Below are positions 38,577-41,452 of a DNA stretch of 62,179 bases, one piece after another. Source of the DNA: Bacillota bacterium (GTDB lineage Bacteria; Bacillota; Clostridia; Saccharofermentanales; Fastidiosipilaceae). The stretch's first letter is position 1. Every line of letters begins with the position of its first letter. The translations under genes and the position numbers were made by a program. The DNA is taken from positions 1 to 62,179 of the forward strand of contig JASGUU010000036.1 of the NCBI GenBank assembly GCA_030057555.1, given 5' to 3'. The notes under the pieces were generated by a model. That model ran no database searches. It was not told the origin of the DNA and was given only the letters and a program-made list of their open reading frames with translations.

Positions 38577-39377
38577 TTAGGTTAGCAGATCCGGGGAAGC
38601 TGCGTCAAACCACCAGCCGCTGTAGTCAGCCGGCGGACAGGTCACAAAAACCGGCCCCAGGCGGGAGGCGGCGGGAAAATCCTGCGGCTGGCCGCTGTCG
38701 CCGAGCAGGAGCCAGTCGGCAGCGGTGAAATCTCCGGGATCCGGCAGGCCGGCATCGCAGGCGTCGCCCGCCAGGGCTTCGAGCCGCGCGAAGATGGCAG
38801 CGCGGCGCCGGAAGGCGGCTTCGAGCCGCTCCCGGCCGCGCTCGCTGCTGCGCTTCCGGGCCGCCTCGAGGCGCTCGAGCTCCGCTACACCCAGAGGAAG
38901 CTGTCCGGGATCGGGAGCGTCACAGTCGACCAGCAGCGCCCAGATGCCCGCCTGTACCCGCCGCAGCCGAAACTCCAGCGCGCTGCGCTCGAGGCGACCC
39001 GGCGGCAGGCGGTCGGCGAGCAGCAGCCGCAGGCTGATCCCCTGATGGCAGTCGAGCTCCGCCCGCAACGGCTCCTCAAGTGTCGTCCCGTCGACGACCA
39101 GGCGCGGGTGGGGATCGGGGTCGCCGGCCTCGCTGCCCGGCAGGATGAGGCGCGCGGCCGTAGCCGCGATCCGTGCTTCGAGCGGTGCCCTGAGGCGGGC
39201 AAAGGCGGCACGCTCCAGCAGCAGGCCGCTGTCGAAGGGACCTCCGCCCGGCCGCGCCGTGAGCCAGTACCAGGACAGCCCGGCCTCCCGGGCGGCCGTC
39301 ACGGCGTACTCAAAGAGCCGGCGGCGCAGCGCTTCCACCTCCGCCGGCAGCTGACTCCAGTCTGCCTCCCCCATCAT
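38577..39377 (-). CDS. Unknown protein, possibly a diverged LicD paralogue
   Basis: A 266-aa soluble protein not recognised by any motif. Its layout parallels LicD next door. LSWYWLTARPGGGPFDSGLL lies where LicD has the [21 protein letters not shown] stretch (cited as FGTLLG...WDDDID). GISLRLLLADRLPPGRLERS lies where LicD has GVFLDLFPLDNVPRGKWRRR. The acidic metal triad is absent (FDSG against WDDDID), so if related it is probably not catalytic. A charged helical stretch (about 165-205) follows. It overlaps the CYTH-flavoprotein gene by 4 bp and ends 6 bp before licD. The relationship is my reading by eye; no alignment was run. Confidence 0.5.
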   Translation of the reverse strand: MMGEADWSQLPAEVEALRRRLFEYAVTAAREAGLSWYWLTARPGGGPFDSGLLLERAAFARLRAPLEARIAATAARLILPGSEAGDPDPHPRLVVDGTTLEEPLRAELDCHQGISLRLLLADRLPPGRLERSALEFRLRRVQAGIWALLVDCDAPDPGQLPLGVAELERLEAARKRSSERGRERLEAAFRRRAAIFARLEALAGDACDAGLPDPGDFTAADWLLLGDSGQPQDFPAASRLGPVFVTCPPADYSGWWFDAASPDLLT

Positions 39378-41452
39378 CGCCCGAGCAGGCTCCGGGCCGC
39401 GGCGGCACCGGCCTCGATACCACTGCAGAAGGCAAAGTGCAGGTTATAGCCGCCGCAGCGGCCATGTATGTCGAGGAGTTCGCCGCAGAAGAACAGACCG
39501 GGATGGCGCCTCGAGGCGAAACCCGGCTCTTCCAGCGTGTCGAGGCGGACGCCGCCGAGCGTCAGCTGGGCCTGGTCATCGCCCCGTGTGCCGGTCACGG
39601 TTACGGGAAGGCTCTTAAGCAGGCGGGCAAAATCGGCTACCTGCTTTGGGCTCAGATCCCGCACCTTGAGCGCACTGTCACCCGGGCCCTGAACCCGCGC
39701 GTCGCGGCGCCGGCGGCGCCGGCGGTCCCTGTCCCCGGCGTCTGCCGCAGCGCCCCCCGATGCCGCTGCGGCAGCCTCGGCCCGCCGCAGCTCCGCGGAG
39801 TCCGCGAGCAGACGTCGCCAGAGGACCCCGCTGAGCCCTGCATCGACGAGCCCGGCGGCGAGCCGTGAGGCCGCGCTCCCGGGCAGCCGTTTGCGGCGCC
39901 GCTCGAGCAGATCCCGGACGGCATCCTCGTCGTGGCCGGGACAGACATCGAGGCGGATCTCAAGCGCGCCGGCGGCGAGGCGCGGCGCCGCGGCACTCGC
40001 GAACTCCATGGCGATAATCCCGGACAGGCCATAGTCGGTCAACAGCAGTTCGCCCTGCTCCGAGATTCTGCCCGCCGTGAGCGTGGCGGCGAGGCGCAGG
40101 CCCCCGAGCCCCTTCAGATCCTCGTCAGAGGTGCACAATGGGACGAGGCCCGGAAGGAGCTCCGTCAGGCTCTCGCCGAGCGCACGGGCCCAGGCGGCAG
40201 CGGAGCCGTCGGCACCGAGGCCGGGAACGGCCCTCCCGCCGCCGGCGAGGATGAGGCGGTCGGCAAAGAGCATTTCCCCCTCCGAAACCCGCACCGCAAA
40301 GCCGCCCCCGGACAGGGCTTCGACACCCAGCACGCGCAGGGAGCAGCGCACATCGATGGCGGCCGCGGCGAGCAGCTCCTCGAGCAGGGAGACCACCGTC
40401 TCCGCGCGCTGCGAAGCCGGGTATACCCGCCCCTCCTCGACATGGCAGGAAAGAGCTGCGGCATTCAGGTACTCATTCAGACGGGCAAAGGGCCAGTCCG
40501 CCACCCAGCGGCTGCGGGCGGCCGCGGCCGCGGGCGTCTCGTCCAGCGAGGCATAGGCGCCGGAGCCGACAGCGAGGTTGCTGAAGTTGCAGCGCCCATT
40601 GCCGGTGGCGAGAAGCTTGCGGCCGATGCGGCGATTGCGCTCGACGAGAACGATGTCCGCCCCCTCCAGCCCCTCCTCCCGCGCCGCCAGGGCGGCGGCG
40701 ACGCCCGCGGGACCGGCGCCTAGGATGAGCAGCGGTATGCGGCCGAGCCGGGCGAGAGCACGGGCCTTCTCGAAACGGGTCGGCACAAGGCCGAAACCGC
40801 CGAGAGCCGCGGCCAGCGCCCCGAGCTCACGGTCGGTGACGGCCGCCTCCGGTGCCTCGCGGCTGACCTCCAGCTCGACGATGGCAACCCGCTCGGCTGC
40901 CCGGCTGCCCGTGAGCACGCCGAGGTCGAGGCTCAGAGCAAAGGCGGACCCGCCTGCACTCTGAAAGCGGGCCTCATGACGTGTGAAGCGTGCGCGCCCC
41001 CGTACTGTCAGCGGCAGCTGCGCAAGCAGGGCGGGCAGGTCGGGCGCGAAGGCGCGGTAGTCGAGGGTGAGGAGCTCGGCACGCAGGCGGGCGAGATCTC
41101 CGGGATCGGCGGGATCAAGCCAGCGTGAGAGATGTCGCTCCGTCTCCGGGCGCAGACTGGCACCGGCCGCGTCGCCCAGCGGGTCGGGCAAGGCCGGCCC
41201 CTTCAGGCAGAGCCTGATGACATCCCCCTCGCGGCGCTGCCGCAGGCTGACGAGGCGTCTTCCGAGCCTTTCGTCGGGGCTGTCGAGATAGAGGGCATCA
41301 TAGTCCTCGGCACTCGGGAGCGGGGCGTCCCCATCGCAGTTCAGCGTTTTGAGGCAAAGTCCGGCGAGCTGCCCGAGAAGCAGCCGGGCCGCCTCTCCGG
41401 AATCCGGCTCCAGCTCCGGCGGCAGACGGAACTTCAACTCCCGTTCCAGCAT
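39374..41452 (-). CDS. Fusion of CYTH (triphosphate tunnel) domain with HI0933-family flavoprotein
   Basis: A 692-aa protein with two unrelated domains in one uninterrupted frame. Residues 1-235 form a CYTH domain: ERELKFRL gives the ExExK signature (Glu3, Glu5, Lys7), with LVSLRQR, LCLKGP, IVELEVS and TRFEKARAL further on. From 238, PLLILGAGPAGVAAALAA (GxGxxG at 245-250), RRIGRKLLATGNGRCNFSN, LILAGGGRAVPGLGADGS and GGYNLHFAFCSG mark the HI0933/BaiN-like flavoprotein. CYTH enzymes act on inorganic polyphosphate or organic triphosphates; HI0933 flavoproteins are oxidoreductases of largely unknown substrate. There is no linker. It starts one base into the upstream stop (TGATG). I know of no such established fusion. 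Confidence 0.85.
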   Translation of the reverse strand: MLERELKFRLPPELEPDSGEAARLLLGQLAGLCLKTLNCDGDAPLPSAEDYDALYLDSPDERLGRRLVSLRQRREGDVIRLCLKGPALPDPLGDAAGASLRPETERHLSRWLDPADPGDLARLRAELLTLDYRAFAPDLPALLAQLPLTVRGRARFTRHEARFQSAGGSAFALSLDLGVLTGSRAAERVAIVELEVSREAPEAAVTDRELGALAAALGGFGLVPTRFEKARALARLGRIPLLILGAGPAGVAAALAAREEGLEGADIVLVERNRRIGRKLLATGNGRCNFSNLAVGSGAYASLDETPAAAAARSRWVADWPFARLNEYLNAAALSCHVEEGRVYPASQRAETVVSLLEELLAAAAIDVRCSLRVLGVEALSGGGFAVRVSEGEMLFADRLILAGGGRAVPGLGADGSAAAWARALGESLTELLPGLVPLCTSDEDLKGLGGLRLAATLTAGRISEQGELLLTDYGLSGIIAMEFASAAAPRLAAGALEIRLDVCPGHDEDAVRDLLERRRKRLPGSAASRLAAGLVDAGLSGVLWRRLLADSAELRRAEAAAAASGGAAADAGDRDRRRRRRRDARVQGPGDSALKVRDLSPKQVADFARLLKSLPVTVTGTRGDDQAQLTLGGVRLDTLEEPGFASRRHPGLFFCGELLDIHGRCGGYNLHFAFCSGIEAGAAAARSLLGR

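What the first reader, a model, noticed from the sequence alone, without database searches (positions are those of the whole stretch)
39374..41452. CYTH domain fused directly to an HI0933-type flavoprotein
Both halves keep their diagnostic residues (ExExK and basic tunnel residues; GxGxxG and the GYNLHFAFCSG end), and there is no stop, frameshift or linker at the join near residue 237. I do not know of an established CYTH-flavoprotein fusion. The gene is coupled to glycan and exporter genes. If the CYTH half binds a triphosphate or polyphosphate, it may regulate the redox half or channel a product.
Basis: partly seen in the sequence, partly recalled or inferred. Interest (0 to 1): 0.62.

Follow-up and report, generated by a model that had tools for sequence, protein, structure and literature searches.

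The report
Tunnel-enzyme and flavoprotein fused into one
One bacterial gene encodes two enzymes joined end to end, a triphosphate-binding tunnel enzyme and a flavin enzyme related to an RNA-modifying enzyme; in most related bacteria the same two genes lie side by side, so the join is real and suggests that the two work together.

Summary
The fusion is real. It is on the minus strand (39374-41452, 692 aa), passes Pfam cut-offs for CYTH and HI0933_like, and is modelled as two confident domains. A same-genus genome has it full length at 71% identity, and three more species encode it. It is the derived form of something larger. Within the order, 134 of the 138 CYTH hits that could be placed lie directly upstream of, or fused to, an HI0933 gene. 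Outside the order, 0 of 46 examined do. The CYTH tunnel residues are complete in 43 of 44 sequences, closest in fold to E. coli triphosphatase ygiF. The HI0933 half lies in a clade apart from the genome's second copy; E. coli YhiN/RdsA, an rRNA dihydrouridine synthase, leans towards that second copy. The four fusions of the window's family carry a lysine/arginine-rich insert lacking in the other 27 rows. Best reading: a triphosphatase-type tunnel coupled to an RdsA-like, probably RNA-directed, reductase. Activity, substrate and coupling are untested.

The parts
39374..41452 (-). CYTH-HI0933 fusion gene, 692 aa
   Evidence: orthologue in same genus
40742..41452 (-). CYTH / triphosphate tunnel half, residues 1-237
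   Evidence: Pfam CYTH 49-203; Z 21.8, rmsd 2.3, 199 aligned to 5a60 ygiF
41432..41446 (-). ExExK motif, residues 3-7
   Evidence: E, E, K in 44 of 44 in-order CYTH sequences
39377..40741 (-). HI0933-type flavoprotein half, residues 238-692
   Evidence: Pfam HI0933_like and HI0933_like_1st; Foldseek 2i0z, 3v76, 4cnj, 2gqf
40703..40720 (-). FAD-binding GAGPAG, residues 245-250
39653..39787 (-). basic insert region, residues 556-600 (13 K+R in 48 residues counted), low pLDDT at 571-590 (52-56)
39419..39454 (-). GGYNLHFAFCSG C-terminal motif, residues 667-678
41452..42798 (-). upstream DUF5711-type protein (448-aa ORF; start probably further in, since the ORF overlaps its neighbour)
   Evidence: no Pfam match for the window ORF at E 0.1; homologous by phmmer cluster F01 and own DUF5711 profile; orthologue L117 is PF18975 DUF5711
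42638..44242 (-). DUF4340 protein of the upstream transporter-type cluster
44260..45915 (-). ABC_transp_aux (GldG-like) protein
38577..39377 (-). downstream 266-aa gene, overlaps the fusion's stop
   Evidence: no Pfam match over cut-off; clusters with LicD-type genes by phmmer (F07)
37641..38570 (-). LicD family gene

Best explanation
Shown: the gene is a natural fusion of two adjacent genes. Across one order of Bacillota a CYTH gene stands directly upstream of an HI0933-family flavoprotein gene, usually behind DUF5711; in five species the two have become one protein. Inferred: the CYTH half is a working triphosphate tunnel metalloenzyme of the tripolyphosphatase / nucleoside-triphosphatase type, two-metal, not an adenylyl cyclase or thiamine triphosphatase by motif. 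The HI0933 half is an FAD-dependent reductase paralogous to RdsA (YhiN) and most likely reduces a uridine in a structured RNA, probably rRNA. The tunnel half acts next to it on triphosphate ends or nucleotides, or gates it by bound triphosphate, and the join fixes the two at one-to-one. My odds: fusion plus conserved pair, about 0.97; functional coupling of some kind, about 0.75; RNA as the flavoprotein's substrate, about 0.45. The confidence below is for the whole statement.
For: Both domains over Pfam cut-off in 5 of 5 fused proteins. 134 of 138 placeable CYTH hits in the order adjacent or fused against 0 of 46 outside it, at CYTH identities of 21-30% to the window copy outside its genus. 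All eight key CYTH residues in 43 of 44 in-order sequences; fold Z 21.8 to ygiF; E4, E6, R56, K69, E160, E162 of ygiF are those shown by structure or mutation in passages of PMC4641920. No HF before ExExK and no W two before the first tunnel Arg in the 16 rows of A4 (key from passages of PMC8233210). HI0933 half: FAD motifs intact, TM 0.81-0.91 (by target) to four solved family members. RdsA named as 23S rRNA D2449 synthase in a passage of PMC12501074; that RdsA is YhiN is recalled. Lys/Arg-rich insert in 4 of 4 fusions of the window's family, as in nucleic-acid-binding loops. Purifying selection on both halves.
Against: No activity, substrate or structure data exist. Neither partner needs the other: three genomes have CYTH and no HI0933 (G002, G044, G053), and 44 of 182 HI0933-bearing genomes of the order have no CYTH hit (some are incomplete). 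The fused HI0933 is not the copy that E. coli YhiN leans to, so RNA as substrate is by family, not orthology; E. coli YhiN itself sits near the split (94.8 on that side, 34.9 on the other). The basic insert is absent from the fifth fusion (G018), so it is not a mark of fusion, and it is the fastest-changing part. One in-order CYTH (G034, L084) has E in place of K84. Fusion partners can be joined for dosage alone.
Confidence: 0.38

Rival explanations
1. The flavoprotein half acts on a small molecule (as reported for the aminoacetone oxidase of the family), and the CYTH half is an independent inorganic triphosphatase; they are joined only for co-expression.
For: The NCBIfam name is 'aminoacetone oxidase family FAD-binding enzyme' and 4cnj is titled as such. 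The clade is paralogous to the side on which E. coli YhiN falls. The neighbours (ABC-type cluster, LicD, flippase) are not RNA genes. CYTH persists alone in three genomes.
Against: The pair is kept in 134 of 138 placeable cases across four families while the genes on either side vary, which is more than co-expression in one operon usually gives. The basic insert has no evident use for a small-molecule enzyme.
Confidence: 0.3
2. The CYTH half is a sensor: it binds triphosphate, polyphosphate or a nucleotide without turning it over and switches the flavoprotein half.
For: Direct join without a linker and a confident two-domain model allow contact. PMC6537752 (abstract in a search listing) reports polyphosphate binding by CHAD, a usual CYTH partner.
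Against: The metal-binding glutamates and the catalytic arginine are all kept (43 of 44 with all eight); a pure sensor need not keep them. The two genes are separate in 129 of 134 linked cases.
Confidence: 0.2
3. The fusion is an assembly or reading artefact.
For: The window genome is a 90-contig assembly.
Against: Independent same-genus record with the same junction, three further species, purifying selection on both sides, one GC-by-codon-position pattern through the join.
Confidence: 0.01

Closest known systems
E. coli ygiF (CYTH-CHAD inorganic triphosphatase, PDB 5a60)
   Same: Nearest solved fold and sequence to the CYTH half: Z 21.8, rmsd 2.3 over 199 residues, profile E 1.1e-15; same tunnel residues.
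   Different: ygiF carries a C-terminal CHAD domain (recalled; the CYTH match covers residues 2-201 of a 429-residue chain), not a flavoprotein; activity here untested.
RdsA (E. coli YhiN), 23S rRNA D2449 dihydrouridine synthase
   Same: Same family (HI0933_like / TIGR00275) and same fold class; FAD motifs kept.
   Different: E. coli YhiN leans to the second, unfused HI0933 copy of these genomes, not to the CYTH-linked clade; no CYTH, no basic insert.
HI0933, B. cereus 2i0z, S. meliloti 3v76, aminoacetone oxidase 4cnj
   Same: Whole HI0933 half matched, TM by target 0.81-0.91.
   Different: All stand-alone proteins without an N-terminal CYTH.
CYTH-CHAD and HD-CYTH proteins
   Same: Other known or seen fusions of the CYTH domain: CYTH-CHAD in L216, HD-CYTH in L202.
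   Different: Partners are a polyphosphate-binding helical domain or a phosphohydrolase, not a redox enzyme.

Membership tests
CYTH / triphosphate tunnel metalloenzyme | Pfam CYTH over cut-off | tested here: met
   32.9 bits against 23.2; 4 of 4 other fusions also over it
CYTH / triphosphate tunnel metalloenzyme | ExExK and acidic ExE with tunnel Arg/Lys | tested here: met
   E3 E5 K7 R71 R73 K84 E193 E195; 43 of 44 in-order sequences; ygiF residues from passages. The HMM alignment to ygiF covers profile 31-220, so E3/E5/K7 are matched by motif and by the fold alignment range
CYTH / triphosphate tunnel metalloenzyme | eight-stranded tunnel fold | tested here: met
   AlphaFold2 pLDDT 93.2, Z 21.8 to 5a60
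CYTH / triphosphate tunnel metalloenzyme | metal-dependent triphosphate hydrolysis | not testable with these tools
   needs protein
class IV adenylyl cyclase (CyaB) | HFxxxxExExK | tested here: not met
   only two residues precede the first Glu; key
thiamine triphosphatase | WxRxR (W/YxRxR in a related cluster) | tested here: not met
   residue 69 is Ser (S69-L-R71-Q-R73); no W there in the 16 rows of A4
HI0933-like flavoprotein (TIGR00275) | family models over cut-off | tested here: met
   PF03486 182.6 against 50; TIGR00275 270.1 against 183.8
RdsA (rRNA dihydrouridine synthase) | groups with E. coli YhiN in a family tree | tested here: inconclusive
   YhiN leans to the second copy, G000:C12 (95 starred; 94.8, the other side 34.9); one reference, long branch
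RdsA (rRNA dihydrouridine synthase) | FAD/NADH-dependent reduction of U2449 | not testable with these tools
   needs an assay; Toubdji 2024 not held

The most novel reading that the evidence does not exclude
The CYTH-linked clade is a second ribosomal dihydrouridine synthase of Bacillota, distinct from the 23S enzyme RdsA and perhaps the missing maker of the D at 1211/1212 reported in Clostridium acetobutylicum 16S rRNA; in this order it works as one unit with a triphosphate tunnel enzyme that acts on the 5'-triphosphate or nucleotide state of its RNA target, in five species as a single bifunctional protein.
Probability: 0.1. Interest if true: 0.78.

Novelty: new variant of a known kind. Interest (0 to 1): 0.5.

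Why it matters
CYTH enzymes are common and their physiological partners are mostly unknown; HI0933 flavoproteins are common and only some have a known substrate. A fusion plus a conserved gene pair ties one to the other and gives each a short list of things to test. If the flavoprotein clade modifies RNA, it may supply an enzyme for a rRNA dihydrouridine that has none (D1211/1212 of C. acetobutylicum 16S rRNA, from passages of a review, PMC9176250); whether that species has a member of this clade was not tested here.

Tried and rejected
Assembly artefact: rejected on four orthologues. Adenylyl cyclase and thiamine triphosphatase readings of the CYTH half: motif keys not met. A single origin of all five fusions: weakly rejected (p-AU 0.0275); the fifth fusion (G018) pairs with an unfused CYTH-less relative, G029 (100 starred), but the four family fusions are not resolved (support 7, with fewer rows, the window pair joins split G007, support 84, and L006 stands apart). 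So the number of fusion events is open; one gain with losses is not excluded. In one search the CYTH-linked copies of one genus of f2 fell in the same weakly supported half as YhiN; all CYTH-linked rows formed one side (94, not starred).

A mixed alignment of fused, CYTH-only and HI0933-only rows (A5) placed the CYTH-only rows wrongly and was not used; the fold job used A6 (fused plus HI0933-only rows). The glycine motif G.GR.N does not separate the two HI0933 clades. Rfam: nothing over threshold in 34000-48000. Literature: 'CYTH domain' with 'HI0933' 0 papers; CYTH, flavoprotein and fusion 1 paper, by its title and abstract on structural outliers; COG2509 with COG2081 0; CYTH/YhiN/BaiN/TIGR00275 in pairs 2 papers, unrelated by title; a broad tunnel-enzyme/domain-fusion search listed 20 of 266, no hit on the pair by title. 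PF21688 as an obligate partner: not so; all 5 fused genomes lack it, but so do 10 genomes with separate CYTH-HI0933 genes in the same 58.

142 CYTH hits in 141 genomes: 125 adjacent, G185, G135 and seven make 134; four lie at contig ends (G183, G163:C144, G141, G155); four are not adjacent (G002, G044, G053 with no HI0933 found; G184, a CYTH-CHAD protein). Outside the order, 24 genomes and 31 had hits beyond those counted already; 46 loci were examined within about 1.5 kb (some cut by contig ends), and 9 genomes whose hits had no locus were not. Tree rows: one search dropped sequences under 330 aa and copies (106 left), one search also left out L036 (105).

Full report
The gene. The window ORF at 39374-41452 is read on the minus strand and encodes 692 residues without a stop. 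Residues 49-203 match CYTH and 241-683 match HI0933_like, both over Pfam's cut-off; the second HI0933 domain also passes. The window is a whole contig of a 2.9 Mb, 90-contig genome, 96% complete. AlphaFold2 with 31 rows gives mean pLDDT 90.0 and pTM 0.79, with only two residues between the last CYTH helix and the first Rossmann strand; the CYTH half alone, with 16 rows, gives 93.2 and 0.88.

The fusion is conserved. Of 58 related genomes searched, five including the window's have one ORF covering both halves: G001 (same genus, 71% identity), G008 and G011 (another genus of the family) and G018 (another family of the order). All five pass Pfam cut-offs for both domains. G001 is JASGUW010000172.1, 'Bacillota bacterium'. 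dN/dS is 0.19 and 0.27 (CYTH, HI0933) for G000/G001 and 0.21 and 0.11 for G008/G011, with dS near saturation; both halves are under purifying selection.

The fusion grew out of a gene pair. A profile of six CYTH halves found 142 hits in 141 of 188 genomes of the order. Against HI0933 places, 125 lie directly upstream on the same strand, with 1-161 nt between profile ends, median 52. Looking at the rest raised this to 134; four are cut by contig ends and four are not adjacent. Of the 134, five are fused. Outside the order, 24 of the 292 genomes (12 of the 292 are of the order) and 31 further genomes have hits; of 46 loci examined within about 1.5 kb, none has HI0933, DUF5711 or the PF21688 flavoprotein beside it, and nine genomes were not examined. 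So the link belongs to this order.

The operon. In 14 annotated loci with CYTH and HI0933, DUF5711 stands directly upstream in 11 of the 13 not cut there (in the other two, one gene of about 620 aa lies between), and a PF21688 FAD protein directly downstream in 7 of 14. ABC-type transporter genes lie further upstream in the window's family and f2. In the wider class, HI0933 is often followed by PF21688 but none of the 28 class loci outside the order had CYTH or DUF5711 beside it. In several relatives HI0933 follows DUF5711 directly with no CYTH (L126, L127, L130, L131, L154), and in G002 CYTH follows DUF5711 with no HI0933. All five fused genomes lack PF21688, but so do ten genomes with separate CYTH and HI0933 genes among the 58.

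The CYTH half. Its nearest solved relative by profile and by fold is E. coli ygiF (E 1.1e-15; Z 21.8, rmsd 2.3, 199 residues). The residues that passages of PMC4641920 name as metal ligands or catalytic in ygiF (E4, E6, E160, E162, R56, K69) have counterparts E3, E5, E193, E195, R71 and K84; with K7 and R73, all eight are present in 43 of 44 in-order sequences, the exception having E at 84. By the motif key in passages of PMC8233210 it is neither a class IV cyclase nor a thiamine triphosphatase. It should therefore be an active triphosphatase; this is not shown.

The flavoprotein half. It matches stand-alone HI0933 structures over its length and TIGR00275. Genomes of the order often have two HI0933 genes. 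In a 42-row tree the CYTH-linked clade and the second copies form two sides (support 94, not starred), with E. coli YhiN on the side of the second copies (94.8) but close to the split; a 105-row tree agrees for YhiN (95 starred) but leaves part of f2 on that side. RdsA makes D2449 of 23S rRNA (passage of PMC12501074); that RdsA is YhiN is recalled, the primary paper not being held. So the fused copy is a paralogue whose substrate is unknown. The four fusions of the window's family carry 8-13 Lys/Arg in a 41-48 residue stretch, which the other 27 rows lack (the nearest has 7 with 6 acidic residues); the fifth fusion has no insert. The stretch is modelled with low confidence and changes fast. 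Such a loop suits nucleic acid, an inference.

How it may work. I think the pair couples a triphosphate tunnel to an RNA-directed flavin reductase. Steps shown: both domains, intact motifs, conserved pairing, fusion in five species. Steps inferred: activity of each half, RNA as substrate, and any exchange between them. Passages of a review (PMC9176250) state that C. acetobutylicum has a dihydrouridine at 1211 or 1212 of 16S rRNA with unknown function; an unassigned HI0933 clade in Bacillota is a natural candidate for such sites, which is the boldest reading I keep.

Standing. As a domain architecture and gene pair I found no report in the library held, which is partial. Each half belongs to a known family, so I file it as a new variant of a known kind.

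Noticed in passing
L202:1495-3555 (G671): An HD-domain phosphohydrolase fused to a C-terminal CYTH domain, 686 aa.
   Followed up: partly
L155, L161, L164, L166, L167, L169, L170, L171, L173-L175, L177 and others: HI0933 with a PF21688 FAD-dependent protein beside it in many genomes of the class, a two-flavoprotein pair older than the CYTH link.
   Followed up: partly
window 39653-39787: Lys/Arg-rich insert in the HI0933 second domain of the four fusions of this family only.
   Followed up: partly
G002, G044, G053: CYTH kept although no HI0933 gene was found in the genome.
   Followed up: partly
window 41452-42798: The DUF5711-type ORF as listed overlaps the DUF4340 gene by about 160 bases; its true start is probably further in.
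   Followed up: no
L034:685-2415 (G006): An HI0933 protein of 576 aa with a long insertion, at the same DUF5711 site without CYTH.
   Followed up: no
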